51,560 nucleotides of DNA from Acidobacteriota bacterium (GTDB lineage: Bacteria > Acidobacteriota > Holophagae > Holophagales > Holophagaceae). Positions within the stretch are counted from its first letter, which is position 1; each line of letters begins with the position of its first letter. This document shows positions 40,005 through 48,981 of the stretch, piece after piece. The stretch is taken from assembly GCA_021802985.1 (NCBI GenBank), contig JAJZQW010000010.1:1-51560 (forward strand), in the 5' to 3' direction. A program made the translations under genes and the position numbers. The notes below the pieces were generated by a model. The model was given only the letters and a program-made list of their open reading frames with translations. It did not search any database and had not been told where the DNA came from.

Positions 40005-40052
40005 TGTACGACCCAGAGGGCGGTGCCCCCGCCGCCTGCTAGGATCCCCTCC

Positions 40053-40853
40053 ATGATTTCCCGTGGATTCGTGCGGCACTTGGGGATCGGTCCATCCATG
40101 GCGATGGGCCTGCTGGTCCTGGCGGCCTGTGGCCGGGCCCCGCTCCGGGTGCCCGAACAACCTGCCCCCCGGCGAACGGTGGTCCGCCCGCTGCCACGCC
40201 TGGGCTACACGCTGCAGGCGGGGGCCTTCGCCAAAGTAGAAAACGCGGCGCGGTTCTCGGAATCGCTGCAGTCCCATGGACTGGAGGCCACGTACTACGC
40301 CTCCCGGGGCGGGTTGTACCGGGTGCGCTTCGGAGACTTCGCCACCAAGGCCCAGGCCCGGGACCGGGGCAAGGCCCTGAAAGCCGCGGGGATCATCGAA
40401 GGCTTCTGGGTCGTGGCGCCGGAAGAGGGGGCACCCACGGTGACGCCGGGCCCAGTCCGACCCCGCCCCACGGATGAGGGCGGGCTGCGGGCCAGCCTGG
40501 TAGAGACCGCCCGGGGCTACCTCGGCGTGCCCTACCTCTTCGGCGGCACCACGGCGCGGGGCTTCGACTGCAGCGGCCTGACGGGGGCCGTCTACCGGCT
40601 GAATGGGCTTCGGCTGCCGCGCTCCTCCGAGGCCCAGTACGAGGCGGGCAGCCCAGTGGACCTGGACCGGGCCCGGGCCGGAGACCTCCTCTTCTTCGCC
40701 ACGGCCGGGGGGAGGCGGGTCAGCCATGTGGGGATGTATTTGGGCCATGGGACGTTCATCCACGCCCCCAGCGAGGGTCGGACCATCTGCGAGGATCGGC
40801 TGGACGAGCGGTACTACCGGAAGACCTTTGTCGGGGCCCGGACGTACTTCTAA
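40053..40853 (+). CDS. Lipoprotein with SPOR and NlpC/P60 domains
   Basis: A 266-residue envelope protein. The signal peptide ends in lipobox LAAC (Cys-26). An SPOR domain (about residues 48-125: GYTLQAGAFAKVENAARFSE, YRVRFGDFATKAQARDRGK) binds denuded septal peptidoglycan. A NlpC/P60 peptidase (about 145-266) carries catalytic Cys in FDCSGLTGAVY near 175, His in VSHVGMYLG near 227 and a second His in FIHAPS. It would cut murein peptides at division sites. ATG 40053 is chosen so that the signal peptide is complete. Confidence 0.92.
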   Translation: MISRGFVRHLGIGPSMAMGLLVLAACGRAPLRVPEQPAPRRTVVRPLPRLGYTLQAGAFAKVENAARFSESLQSHGLEATYYASRGGLYRVRFGDFATKAQARDRGKALKAAGIIEGFWVVAPEEGAPTVTPGPVRPRPTDEGGLRASLVETARGYLGVPYLFGGTTARGFDCSGLTGAVYRLNGLRLPRSSEAQYEAGSPVDLDRARAGDLLFFATAGGRRVSHVGMYLGHGTFIHAPSEGRTICEDRLDERYYRKTFVGARTYF

Positions 40854-45097: not shown

Positions 45098-47044
45098 ATG
45101 CTGCCAGACCGGATCCACTTCGAGGGACGCGTGCTCTTCCTGTCGGAGGACGCGGAGAAGGTCCGCCGGCAACTGGCGGGTGAAGACCTTGAGCCCGGCG
45201 AGGCCCTGCCGCTGCGGGACCAGATCAGCACCGACGAGATCACACCGGCCTGGATCTGCTACCACTACGACGAGAAGCTGGGCGAGTTCCCCTACCTGGG
45301 CCTGAAGTGCGGCGAGGCGTTCCCGGTGAAGGCCGGCGCCGTGCGGGCGGGAAGCTTCGCCGTGAGCGTGGCGGGGAAGCGGCGGGGCAAGGGCAGCAGC
45401 CGCGAGGCCAGCCCCTACGCCGAGTGGTGCGCGGGCCTCCGGCTGGTGATCGCCGAGAGCTTCGAGCGCATCTACCGCCAGAACTGCCAGAACCTGGGCC
45501 TGCTCACCAGCACCGACCTGGGCCTGGTGGCCCGTATCCGGGGCGGCGAGGCCATTCCGCTCGCCGAATTCACCGAGGGCCTGGATCCCATTACCGCGGG
45601 CCTGGTGCGCCAGGGAGGGCTCTTCGCCTACAACGCCGCCCGACTGCGCGGCGAAGAAACGCCCCCACCGCCCGGGTCGGGACTCCAACCCATGACCTAC
45701 GCCGAGAAGATCCTGGCCCGGCACGCCGTGGTGGACGCCGCCGCGGGGCACCTCGGCCTGCCGTCGGTCCGGCCCGGGGATGGGCTTTTCGTGAAGGCGG
45801 ACTGGCGCTTCTCCCACGACTACGTGACGCCCATGGCAGCCAGCTTCCTGGAGAAGGCCCTGGGCCCGGACGTGGTTCTGCGGGATCCCGCCACCATCCT
45901 GGCTTTCCGCGACCACCTCACCTTCCTGCACCACAGCATGCGCGCTGAGCACCGGGCCCAGGGCCTGCTGGAGGTGGCCCAGCGCCTGAAGCCGGCCCAG
46001 GAGGCCTTCTGCGAACGCCACGGCATCCGCCTCCACGGCGAGCTTCCCGATGGCAACGGCAGCGAGGGCATCTGCCACGCGATCATGACCGAACGCTACG
46101 TTCTGCCGGGCCAGGTGGTGGTGGGCACGGATTCCCACACGCCCCACGCGGGGGCCCTGGGCTGCCTCGCGTTCGGGGTGGGCACCACGGACATCGCCGC
46201 CGCCTGGGTCACGGGTGATGTACGCGCGACCGTTCCGCCCACGATTCGCGTGCTCCTTTCGGGCCGCCTCCGCCCCGGCCTCTCCGCCAAGGATCTGGTG
46301 CTGCACCTGCTGGCGCAGCCCTTCATCCGGGAGGGCGGTGCGCTGGGTCATGTGGTGGAATACCAGGGTGAGGCGCTGACGGATCTCGATACCGATGAGC
46401 GGGCCACGCTCACGAACATGGCAGCGGAGATCGGTGGCTTCACGGGACTCATCGCACCGGATGCGGAGACCGTCCGCTTCGTGAAGGATCGGCGGGGTGT
46501 GGAGCTCCTGCTGGAGGACTGGATGCACGGTGATGCGGGGGCCAACTACGCCCACACCGTCGAGGTGGACTGTTCGGCCCTGGCCCCCATGCTGGCCCGG
46601 CCGGGAGACCCGGGGAATGGCCTCGCGCTGGCTGATCTCAAGGAGGAGGTCCCCATCCACATCGCCTACCTGGGCAGCTGCACGGGCGGCAAGCGCGAGG
46701 ATCTCCGCCGGGCCTACGAGGTGGTCAAGGAGGCTGCGGCGGCGGGTCGGCGCATTCCGAAGGACGTACAATTCTTCGTGCAGTGCGGCAGCGAGGAGGT
46801 GCGCCGCCACGCCGCAGAGCAGGGCTGGCTCGCGGCCTTCGAGGCCGTGGGGGCCGTGGTGCTGGGCAGTTCCTGTGGGGCCTGCATCAACGCGGGCCCG
46901 GGTGTTTCCACTCGGGCCGACCAGGTGACCATCAGCGCCATCAATCGCAACTTCCCGGGCCGCAGCGGTCCCGGCCAGATGTGGCTGGCCAGTCCCGCCA
47001 CCGTGGCCGCCAGCGCCCTCGCCGGACGCATCGTGGGCGCCTGA
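45098..47044 (+). CDS. Aconitase/isopropylmalate-dehydratase-family enzyme, swivel domain first
   Basis: A 648-residue iron-sulfur hydro-lyase in permuted order. The swivel (LeuD-like) domain is first, about residues 30-185: QISTDEITPAW, then RRGKGSSREASPYAEW near 90-105 and LVIAESFERIYRQNCQNLGL. The cluster-bearing LeuC-like domain follows (about 205-648), with VVGTDSHTPHAGALGCLAFG near 343-362 and the three cluster cysteines in YLGSCTGGK near 527 and SSCGACINAG near 590. Usual aconitases end with the swivel. Substrate is unknown: aconitate, isopropylmalate, homocitrate or methylcitrate are all possible. Its stop overlaps the next gene by one base. Confidence 0.87.
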   Translation: MLPDRIHFEGRVLFLSEDAEKVRRQLAGEDLEPGEALPLRDQISTDEITPAWICYHYDEKLGEFPYLGLKCGEAFPVKAGAVRAGSFAVSVAGKRRGKGSSREASPYAEWCAGLRLVIAESFERIYRQNCQNLGLLTSTDLGLVARIRGGEAIPLAEFTEGLDPITAGLVRQGGLFAYNAARLRGEETPPPPGSGLQPMTYAEKILARHAVVDAAAGHLGLPSVRPGDGLFVKADWRFSHDYVTPMAASFLEKALGPDVVLRDPATILAFRDHLTFLHHSMRAEHRAQGLLEVAQRLKPAQEAFCERHGIRLHGELPDGNGSEGICHAIMTERYVLPGQVVVGTDSHTPHAGALGCLAFGVGTTDIAAAWVTGDVRATVPPTIRVLLSGRLRPGLSAKDLVLHLLAQPFIREGGALGHVVEYQGEALTDLDTDERATLTNMAAEIGGFTGLIAPDAETVRFVKDRRGVELLLEDWMHGDAGANYAHTVEVDCSALAPMLARPGDPGNGLALADLKEEVPIHIAYLGSCTGGKREDLRRAYEVVKEAAAAGRRIPKDVQFFVQCGSEEVRRHAAEQGWLAAFEAVGAVVLGSSCGACINAGPGVSTRADQVTISAINRNFPGRSGPGQMWLASPATVAASALAGRIVGA

Positions 47045-48981
47045 TGGTGGACCCCGTCCTCGCCGCCCGCTACCGCGCCCTGCTGCTGGCGGGGCTCGAA
47101 CACCGGGGCGCGCCGGCACTGGATGCAAGGGGGCGCGTTCTCGTGGTGGATCCGGCGCGCCAGCGGCTGGGCCTGCTGGAGGACGGCCTCCTGGCCTTTG
47201 AAGCAGTCGTGTCCACGGCCCTGAACGGCCTGGGCTGCGAGGAGAACTCCTACCGCACGCCCACGGGCTGGCACCGCATCCATGCGCGCATCGGCGCCGA
47301 CGCGGAACCCGGCGCCGTCTTCCGCAACCGCACGGCCACGGGTGAGGTCTGGCGGGGCGAGGACCGGGAGGACGATCTCATCCTCACCCGCGTGCTCACG
47401 CTGGACGGCCTTGAAGTGGGCTGGAACCGCGGGCCCGGGCTGGATTCCCTGGCGCGGTATATCTACCTGCACGGCACCAACCGGGAGCAGGACCTGGGTC
47501 GACCGCTCTCCCATGGCTGTGTGCGGCTCTCCAACGCCGATGTGGCAGATCTCTTTGACCGCGTGACCGAAGGCGATCCCATGTTCATCGCGTCCGAGCC
47601 GCTGGAAGCGGGGTTGGGCCTCGGACGTCTCCACTTCGCGGGTGTCGCGGGCAGTGGCATGAGCGCCCTGGCGCAGTTCGTGGCCATGAAGGGTGGGCGG
47701 GCCAGCGGCAGCGATCGCAGTTTCGACCGGGGCCAGCGCCCCGGGGATCGCGCCAGGCTGGAGGGCCTGGGCATCGTCATCGCGCCCCAGGACGGCTCGG
47801 GCCTTCAGGGCGACTGCGCGGGGCTGGTGGTGTCCACGGCGGTGGAGGAGGAGGTTCCGGACGTGGCCGAGGCGCGGCGTCTGGGCGTACCCGTGCTGCA
47901 CCGCTCGGAGCTGCTGGCGCACCTGGTGGCGCGGTACCGCACCGTGGCCATCACCGGCACCAGCGGCAAGTCCAGCACCGTGGCCATGACCTTCGAGATC
48001 CTTCGAGACGCCGGGCGGGATCCCTCCGTCATCACGGGCGGTGAATTGGTGGCCCTGCAACGGGAGGGGCTCTGGGGCAACGCCTGGGCCGGGTCCTCGG
48101 ACCTGCTGGTCATCGAGGCCGACGAAAGCGACGGCTCCGTGGTGCGCTACCACCCGGCCGTGGGCGTCCTCCTCAACCTGCAGAAGGACCACAAGGACGT
48201 AGCCACGGTGGCGGCGCTGTTCCGCGCCTTCCGCGCCCAGATCCGCGAGACCTGCGTGGTGGGAGAGGCGGAGAACCTGCGGGAATTCGCTGAGGGTTCC
48301 CCGGTCTTCGGGTTCGGCCCGGGCGCGACCGTGCGCGCCGCAGACCTGGTCCTGGCTCCGAAGGGCACCTCCTTCAGCGTGGAGGGCGTGGCCTTCCACC
48401 TGCCGGTACCGGGCCGCCACAACGTGGAGAACGCACTGGCGGCCATCGCCGCCTGTCGGGCCCTGGACGTGCCGCTGGCGGCCATGGCGGCCCCCCTGGC
48501 CCGCTTCCAGGGGGTGGCGCGGCGCTTCCAGTCGCTGGGCACGCGGGGCGACATCACGGTGGTGGACGACTTCGGCCACAACCCGGCCAAGGTGGCGGCT
48601 TCCATCCGGGCGGCCCACCTGGGGACGGAGGCGACCGGTGGGCGCGTGCTGGCGGTCTTTCAGCCGCACGGCTTCGGACCGCTGAAGTTCCTCCGCGCGG
48701 ACTTCGTGGCGGCCTTCACGGCCGAACTTGCGCCACAGGACCACCTCTGGTTCCTGGAGGTGTTCTACGCGGGCGGCACGGCGACCCGGGACATCACCAG
48801 TGAGGACGTGGTGGCCGACCTCGTGGCGCAGGGTGTCGCCGCCGAATTCGCACCATCCCGGGAGTGGCTGGCGGCGCGGCTGGCCGCTGAAGCGAAGGCG
48901 GGCGACCTGATCCTCGTCATGGGGGCTCGGGATCCCTCTCTGACAGATCTGGCAAAGGCGCTCCTGGAGAGATTCGGATGA
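47044..48981 (+). CDS. YkuD (L,D-transpeptidase-fold) fused to Mpl/MurC-like Mur ligase
   Basis: A 645-residue fusion with no signal peptide, hence cytoplasmic. The YkuD domain (about residues 30-185) has YIYLHGTNREQDLGRPLSHG near 138-157 and catalytic Cys in HGCVRLSN near 159. The Mur ligase (about 195-645) has HFAGVAGSGMSALAQF near 198, ATP loop GTSGKSST near 306, VIEADESDGS near 357, GRHNVENALAAIAAC near 457 and VDDFGHNPAKV near 507. Mpl ligates recycled tripeptide to UDP-MurNAc. A cytoplasmic YkuD domain would fit an L,D-carboxypeptidase making that tripeptide. The start ATG is set by the overlap with the previous stop. Confidence 0.9.
   Translation: MVDPVLAARYRALLLAGLEHRGAPALDARGRVLVVDPARQRLGLLEDGLLAFEAVVSTALNGLGCEENSYRTPTGWHRIHARIGADAEPGAVFRNRTATGEVWRGEDREDDLILTRVLTLDGLEVGWNRGPGLDSLARYIYLHGTNREQDLGRPLSHGCVRLSNADVADLFDRVTEGDPMFIASEPLEAGLGLGRLHFAGVAGSGMSALAQFVAMKGGRASGSDRSFDRGQRPGDRARLEGLGIVIAPQDGSGLQGDCAGLVVSTAVEEEVPDVAEARRLGVPVLHRSELLAHLVARYRTVAITGTSGKSSTVAMTFEILRDAGRDPSVITGGELVALQREGLWGNAWAGSSDLLVIEADESDGSVVRYHPAVGVLLNLQKDHKDVATVAALFRAFRAQIRETCVVGEAENLREFAEGSPVFGFGPGATVRAADLVLAPKGTSFSVEGVAFHLPVPGRHNVENALAAIAACRALDVPLAAMAAPLARFQGVARRFQSLGTRGDITVVDDFGHNPAKVAASIRAAHLGTEATGGRVLAVFQPHGFGPLKFLRADFVAAFTAELAPQDHLWFLEVFYAGGTATRDITSEDVVADLVAQGVAAEFAPSREWLAARLAAEAKAGDLILVMGARDPSLTDLAKALLERFG

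What the first reader, a model, noticed from the sequence alone, without database searches (positions are those of the whole stretch)
47044..48981. Cytoplasmic YkuD domain fused to an Mpl/MurC-like ligase
The fusion joins a YkuD catalytic domain (His and Cys motifs intact) to a Mur ligase and has no export signal. YkuD enzymes are usually periplasmic transpeptidases, but cytoplasmic L,D-carboxypeptidases of this fold are known in murein recycling. Mpl uses the tripeptide such an enzyme would produce. The fusion therefore looks like a one-chain recycling enzyme that trims tetrapeptide to tripeptide and ligates it to UDP-MurNAc.
Basis: partly seen in the sequence, partly recalled or inferred. 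Interest (0 to 1): 0.72.

Follow-up and report, generated by a model that had tools for sequence, protein, structure and literature searches.

The report
Fused murein trim-and-religate recycling enzyme
Geothrix and its relatives join in one cytoplasmic protein a domain that should trim used cell-wall peptides and one that should glue the trimmed peptide back onto a cell-wall precursor; the gluing half belongs to a family not described in the papers we could search, which other bacteria keep beside or fused to an unrelated trimming enzyme.

Summary
The fusion is real: one 645-residue ORF at 47044-48981, with YkuD (31-182) then a complete Mur ligase (196-629). YkuD His143 and Cys159 are invariant in 25 relatives, and no export signal was seen. 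The YkuD half is closest to ElsL, the cytoplasmic L,D-carboxypeptidase (LDC) of Acinetobacter. Among 247 Acidobacteriota genomes, this ligase occurs only in Holophagaceae (21 of 22).

The ligase is neither the genome's MurC (a separate gene clears the MurC cut-off) nor canonical Mpl. It falls in a third MurC/Mpl-like clade, also present in Alphaproteobacteria and two delta-type genomes. All 52 members compared lack both arginines that MurC uses to bind L-Ala but keep the ATP site.

The clade travels with an LDC. Of 42 members without YkuD, 30 have a serine-type S66 LDC within 200 bp (one fused to it), and two more lie farther off. One Holophagaceae genome carries ligase plus S66 instead of the YkuD fusion. 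Canonical Mpl was not found in genomes holding the new ligase.

Activities are inferred; the source of free peptide in Geothrix is unclear. New variant of a known kind.

The parts
47044..48981 (+). YkuD-Mur ligase fusion gene, 645 aa
   Evidence: Open frame; four Pfam domains; conserved in Holophagaceae; AlphaFold2 model mean pLDDT 88, pTM 0.88.
47134..47589 (+). YkuD domain, residues 31-182, predicted cytoplasmic L,D-carboxypeptidase of ElsL type
   Evidence: PF03734 E 4.8e-20; best NCBIfam match ElsL NF040925, 131 bits against 27 or less for L,D-transpeptidase models; predicted fold matches B. subtilis YkuD, Z 15.1.
47470..47472 (+). catalytic His143 codon (HGT motif)
   Evidence: Read from sequence; invariant in 25 fusions.
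47518..47520 (+). catalytic Cys159 codon (SHGCVR motif)
   Evidence: Read from sequence; invariant in 25 fusions.
47629..48930 (+). Mur ligase, residues 196-629: N-terminal UDP-MurNAc domain, ATP domain, C-terminal acceptor domain
   Evidence: PF01225, PF08245, PF02875; predicted fold matches MurC (1p31 Z 37.6, rmsd 2.4 over 438) and Mpl (3hn7 Z 30.8).
47956..47973 (+). ATP P-loop GTSGKS (residues 305-310)
   Evidence: P-loop Gly and Lys conserved in 52/52 clade members, 25/25 MurC and 5/5 Mpl.
48574..48591 (+). clade motif GHNPAK (511-516); MurC has GHHPTE
   Evidence: N513 and K516 in 52/52 clade members and in 0/25 MurC and 0/5 Mpl.
48658..48681 (+). clade motif FQPHGFGP (539-546), replacing MurC FQPHRYTR
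   Evidence: The columns of H. influenzae MurC R377 and R380, which bind L-Ala (PMC3060825), hold no Arg in any of 52 members and Arg in 25/25 MurC.
48922..48933 (+). clade motif GARD (627-630), replacing MurC GAG(N/S/D)
   Evidence: R629 in 50/52 clade members and in 0/25 MurC.

Best explanation
A bifunctional cytoplasmic murein-recycling enzyme. The N-terminal ElsL-like YkuD domain uses Cys159 and His143 to remove the terminal D-Ala from murein tetrapeptide (L-Ala-D-Glu-mDap-D-Ala, free or muropeptide-bound). The C-terminal domain is a third-clade UDP-MurNAc:peptide ligase: it phosphorylates the lactyl carboxylate of UDP-MurNAc with ATP and joins it to the amino group of the tripeptide, giving UDP-MurNAc-tripeptide, which re-enters synthesis at MurF. 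Having both activities on one chain would limit tetrapeptide entering lipid II. Shown here: the two-domain gene, its conservation, intact catalytic and ATP-site residues, loss of the MurC L-Ala residues, a separate MurC, mutual absence of canonical Mpl, and recurrent linkage of this ligase clade to an LDC. Inferred: the substrates, the order of reactions, and any benefit of fusion. No channelling was shown.
For: (1) YkuD half: best NCBIfam match is ElsL, 131 bits against 27 for L,D-transpeptidases; the fusion is the only detected YkuD protein in 16 of the 24 genus genomes that have one. (2) The ligase is not MurC: separate MurC at 553 bits; third clade in the tree, with MurC 99/91, Mpl 100/100, fusion 100/100 and MurC+Mpl against the rest 92/97; R377 and R380 columns hold Arg in 0/52 against 25/25 in MurC. 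(3) Coupling to LDCs: S66 within 200 bp in 30 of 42 YkuD-less members, two more at 691 and 1388 bp, and no S66 hit in loci fetched for unrelated reasons; ligase-S66 fusion in L060 with both S66 domains; ligase plus S66 instead of YkuD in Holophagaceae UBA1801, S66 E 1.5e-39. (4) Mpl complementarity: no Mpl beyond MurC level in 42 genomes with the clade or in the 25 genus genomes; most sister-family f2 genomes have Mpl-like hits of 221-341 bits, several with a stand-alone ElsL-like YkuD. (5) The AmpG permease clears its cut-off in 22 of 25 genus genomes.
Against: No activity was measured. The ligase scores nearer MurC (295 bits) than Mpl (102) and lacks Mpl signature motifs, so tripeptide specificity is inferred. 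ElsL and LdcA matches are below those models' curated cut-offs. AmpD-type amidase PF01510 was not found in 19 of 25 genus genomes, so how free peptide arises is unexplained. Ten of 42 YkuD-less members, including both delta-type ones, have no S66 nearby. The S66 family also contains enzymes that are not LDCs (established knowledge).
Confidence: 0.75

Rival explanations
1. The ligase half is a second MurC that adds L-Ala to UDP-MurNAc, and the fusion to YkuD has no functional meaning.
For: Its best curated match is MurC (295 bits); one clade member (L052) even clears the MurC cut-off (348 against 335); the predicted fold matches MurC best.
Against: Arg is absent from both L-Ala-binding columns in 52/52 members; a separate MurC is present in most genomes examined; the tree puts it outside MurC; repeated linkage to LDCs would be unexplained.
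Confidence: 0.08
2. The protein acts on other peptides: the ligase attaches a dipeptide, tetrapeptide or amidated stem, or the YkuD domain swaps the terminal D-Ala for another D-amino acid, so it edits precursors rather than recycling tripeptide.
For: YkuD enzymes are mostly transpeptidases (established knowledge); Mpl also accepts tetra- and pentapeptides (PMC3060825); the acceptor motifs GHNPxK, PHG and GARD match neither MurC nor Mpl.
Against: The YkuD half resembles ElsL, shown to be a carboxypeptidase (PMC8649774), and in other lineages the partner is S66, a hydrolase family.
Confidence: 0.13
3. The protein senses or regulates: one or both domains bind muropeptides without catalysis.
For: No biochemical data exist.
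Against: Catalytic His and Cys are invariant in 25 fusions and the P-loop Lys in 52 ligases.
Confidence: 0.04

Closest known systems
ElsL, cytoplasmic YkuD L,D-carboxypeptidase of Acinetobacter baumannii (PMC8649774)
   Same: Leaderless YkuD domain with His and Cys intact; best NCBIfam match of the YkuD half.
   Different: ElsL stands alone and works with a separate Mpl; here the domain is fused to a ligase, and its score (131 bits) is below the ElsL model cut-off of 270.
Mpl, murein peptide ligase (TIGR01081; PDB 3hn7)
   Same: Predicted reaction, tripeptide plus UDP-MurNAc; MurC-type fold.
   Different: 102 bits against a cut-off of 389; separate clade; lacks the AFFDKRSK and EPRSNT motifs.
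MurC, UDP-MurNAc:L-Ala ligase (TIGR01082)
   Same: Closest family by score and fold; ATP-site residues conserved.
   Different: Below the cut-off; both L-Ala-binding arginines replaced; a separate MurC exists in the genome.
MurC-Ddl and MurB-MurC fusions (NF011171; PMC4803751)
   Same: Natural fusions that include a MurC-type ligase.
   Different: They join steps of new synthesis; this one joins what look like two steps of recycling.
LdcA, S66 L,D-carboxypeptidase
   Same: Would do the same trimming; S66 proteins stand beside or fused to the same ligase clade elsewhere.
   Different: Unrelated serine-type fold; not the domain present here.

Membership tests
ElsL-type L,D-carboxypeptidase | YkuD domain with catalytic His and Cys motifs | tested here: met
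   PF03734 E 4.8e-20; H143 and C159 invariant.
ElsL-type L,D-carboxypeptidase | no export signal (cytoplasmic) | tested here: met
   Hydropathy of the first 50 residues only; no signal-peptide predictor or localisation experiment.
ElsL-type L,D-carboxypeptidase | score above the curated ElsL cut-off | tested here: not met
   131 bits against 270, though by far the best match.
ElsL-type L,D-carboxypeptidase | removes D-Ala from murein tetrapeptide | not testable with these tools
   Needs an enzyme assay.
Canonical Mpl | score above the TIGR01081 cut-off | tested here: not met
   102 bits against 388.7.
Canonical Mpl | Mpl-specific motifs AFFDKRSK and EPRSNT | tested here: not met
   Insert absent; FQPHGFGP in place of the EPRSNT region.
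Canonical Mpl | groups with Mpl in the tree | tested here: not met
   Mpl clade 100/100 excludes it.
Canonical Mpl | ligates murein tripeptide to UDP-MurNAc | not testable with these tools
   Needs an enzyme assay.
MurC | score above the TIGR01082 cut-off | tested here: not met
   295 bits against 335.1; own MurC 553.
MurC | L-Ala-binding Arg377 and Arg380 (H. influenzae numbering) | tested here: not met
   0 of 52 clade members, 25 of 25 MurC (residues from PMC3060825).
MurC | falls inside the MurC clade | tested here: not met
   MurC clade 99/91 excludes it.
Exported L,D-transpeptidase | signal peptide or membrane anchor | tested here: not met
   None seen by hydropathy; fused to an ATP-dependent cytoplasmic ligase.

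The most novel reading that the evidence does not exclude
The ligase half founds a third family of UDP-MurNAc:peptide ligases, distinct from MurC and Mpl, that is tied to an L,D-carboxypeptidase; the partner has been replaced across lineages (S66 in divergent or tandem genes, S66 fused behind it, YkuD fused in front), giving a trim-and-religate module in Alphaproteobacteria and Holophagaceae that a search for LdcA plus Mpl would miss.
Probability: 0.6. Interest if true: 0.72.

Novelty: new variant of a known kind. Interest (0 to 1): 0.62.

Why it matters
Peptide recycling by an LDC plus Mpl is known mainly from gammaproteobacteria, and bacteria without recognisable Mpl are thought to break the peptide down to amino acids (PMC13046382, for Caulobacter and others). 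A second ligase family, annotated as MurC-like, would mean such genomes need a second look. The fusion also suggests a testable answer to how cells keep tetrapeptide out of lipid II, whose build-up is toxic in LDC mutants (PMC8649774), and gene fusion plus partner replacement is unusually direct genomic evidence for coupling of the two steps.

Tried and rejected
Ligase as the genome's only MurC: rejected, separate MurC at 553 bits. Canonical Mpl: rejected by score, motifs and tree. Chance fusion or assembly artefact: rejected by conservation in many genomes and in different gene contexts. A dcw-cluster setting for the genome's own MurC: not seen in L005, so its MurC identity rests on score and residues. 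AmpD-type amidase as the peptide source: not found in 19 of 25 genus genomes; the neighbourhood of AmpG gave no clue. No paper describing a YkuD or LDC fusion to a Mur ligase was found in the searches made; only open-licence PMC papers are held. Metagenome contigs were not searched.
Full report
WHAT IS THERE. The frame 47044-48981 (+) encodes 645 residues, starting one base inside the stop codon of an aconitase-family gene. Pfam finds YkuD at 31-182 and a complete three-domain Mur ligase at 196-629, all above curated cut-offs. The YkuD motifs H143-G-T and S156-H-G-C159-V-R are intact, and both catalytic residues are invariant in 25 aligned fusions. The N-terminus shows no export signal by hydropathy. 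An AlphaFold2 model from 29 sequences has mean pLDDT 88 and pTM 0.88, with weak loops at 62-69 and 95-110 in the YkuD half.

DISTRIBUTION. The window lies in a 72% complete Geothrix-like genome (taxonomic placement from the closest named loci). The fusion was found in some 46 Holophagaceae-type loci of genome contigs, mostly 63-85% identical, and in 24 of 25 searched genomes of the genus. In a few of these the frame is broken or has an internal gap (G010, G011), and G005 ends with its contig. In 247 Acidobacteriota genomes, ligase profile A1 scores above 600 bits only in family f1 (21 of 22 genomes); all others stay at 354 bits or less, the level of MurC. The flanking genes change while the fusion stays: the aconitase and MazG neighbours are missing in several loci.

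THE YKUD HALF. Its best NCBIfam match is ElsL at 131 bits, against 27 or less for L,D-transpeptidase models, but the ElsL cut-off of 270 is not reached. ElsL is a leaderless cytoplasmic YkuD enzyme that removes D-Ala from disaccharide tetrapeptide (PMC8649774). Folded alone (pLDDT 83), the domain matches B. subtilis YkuD best (Z 15.1, rmsd 2.3 over 115 residues). The fold cannot separate carboxypeptidase from transpeptidase. In 16 of the 24 genus genomes that have a YkuD match, there is only one match, in the fusion.

THE LIGASE HALF. It scores 295 bits on MurC (cut-off 335) and 102 on Mpl (cut-off 389). The same genome has another ligase, C40:7581-8891, at 553 bits on MurC. In a maximum-likelihood tree of 84 ligases, MurC (99/91), Mpl (100/100) and the fusion clade (100/100) are separate. 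The fusion groups with stand-alone ligases of Alphaproteobacteria and two delta-type genomes, apart from MurC plus Mpl (92/97), with long branches as a caution. H. influenzae MurC is thought to bind L-Ala through Y346, H348, H376, R377 and R380 (PMC3060825). Mapped through E. coli MurC, the R377 and R380 columns hold no Arg in 52 clade members and Arg in 25 of 25 MurC. Positions N513, K516 and R629 are clade marks, and the P-loop Lys is kept in all. So the donor and ATP side looks like MurC while the acceptor side differs from both MurC and Mpl. That R629 or K516 binds the peptide is a guess from position.

LINKAGE TO L,D-CARBOXYPEPTIDASES. This evidence weighs most. In a sample of 289 alphaproteobacterial genomes, 33 carry the ligase. 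Among 42 YkuD-less clade loci, 32 also hold an S66 carboxypeptidase: 30 within 200 bp, two at 691 and 1388 bp (the last across runs of N). The arrangement is divergent in one group and tandem in another. The loci fetched for unrelated reasons gave no S66 hit; the control list also contains repeat fetches of the same places and loci fetched because they hold S66, which do not count. In L060 ligase and S66 form one 767-residue frame. In Holophagaceae UBA1801 (L054) the ligase has no YkuD part and is followed by an S66 gene (E 1.5e-39); that ligase is interrupted by runs of N in the assembly. Thus one ligase clade is paired with two unrelated carboxypeptidase classes. The tandem S66 partners resemble LdcA (181-200 bits); the divergent ones less so (about 60 bits), and all are below the LdcA cut-off of 378.

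COMPLEMENTARITY WITH MPL. No genome among 42 with the clade has a match to the canonical Mpl model beyond what its MurC or the clade ligase gives (211 bits at most); the same holds in the 25 genus genomes. In the sister family f2, most genomes have Mpl-like hits of 221-341 bits (still below the cut-off), and several have a stand-alone ElsL-like YkuD. The same two activities thus seem to be filled by different genes in related families.

PATHWAY CONTEXT. AmpG clears its cut-off in 22 of 25 genus genomes, but was not found in the incomplete window genome. S66 was not found in most genus genomes, the window genome among them. AmpD-type amidase was not found in 19 of 25, so the step that frees the peptide from the sugar is unknown; another amidase or import of free peptide would be needed. 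This is the main gap in the model.

MECHANISM AND CONFIDENCE. The best-supported account is trimming of tetrapeptide to tripeptide by the YkuD domain and ligation of the tripeptide to UDP-MurNAc by the ligase, so that the product re-enters at MurF (confidence 0.75). Shown: the gene, its conservation, the residue patterns, the phylogeny and the linkage. Inferred: both substrates, the order, and the benefit of fusion. Rivals: a second MurC (0.08), editing with other peptides or D-amino acids (0.13), a non-catalytic role (0.04).

NOVELTY. The activities are known as separate enzymes, ElsL or LdcA plus Mpl. Fusions of Mur ligases are known for new synthesis (MurC-Ddl, an NCBIfam model; MurB-MurC, PMC4803751). 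No description of a carboxypeptidase-ligase fusion or of this ligase clade was found in the open-licence papers searched, which is not proof of absence. Work on Caulobacter reports neither LdcA nor Mpl there (PMC13046382); whether Caulobacter has this clade was not tested. Rated as a new variant of a known kind.

Noticed in passing
window 45098-47044 (+): Aconitase-family protein of 648 aa with the Aconitase_C (swivel) match at 90-137, before the catalytic domain at 228-643, the reverse of the usual order; no curated NCBIfam cut-off among the aconitase and isopropylmalate dehydratase models shown is reached. It overlaps the fusion gene by one base.
   Followed up: partly
L233 (G007:C1:920000-939000) and similar places in G003, G004, G009, G021, G022: A subset of Geothrix genomes carries S66, AmpD-type amidases and a second AmpG-like permease; where read (L233), frames resembling D-Ala-D-Ala dipeptidase and glutamate racemase lie nearby. 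It looks like an extra cell-wall peptide uptake or use cluster.
   Followed up: partly
L060:3452-5752 (+): Rumen alphaproteobacterium with the same ligase clade fused to an S66 carboxypeptidase at its C-terminus, 767 aa.
   Followed up: yes
L005:7536-8942 (+): The genome's own MurC does not sit in an evident division and cell-wall gene cluster, while two other Mur ligases (one MurD-like) lie together on contig C76.
   Followed up: partly
window 40023-40853 (+): Frame reads like a SPOR-type repeat plus NlpC/P60 cell-wall hydrolase with a lipoprotein-like N-terminus, just before two flagellar rod/hook-like genes; read by eye only.
   Followed up: no
G211: A 1.2 Mb genome of the same family, rated 96% complete, keeps MurC but shows no fusion ligase, which would fit loss of recycling in a reduced genome.
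   Followed up: no
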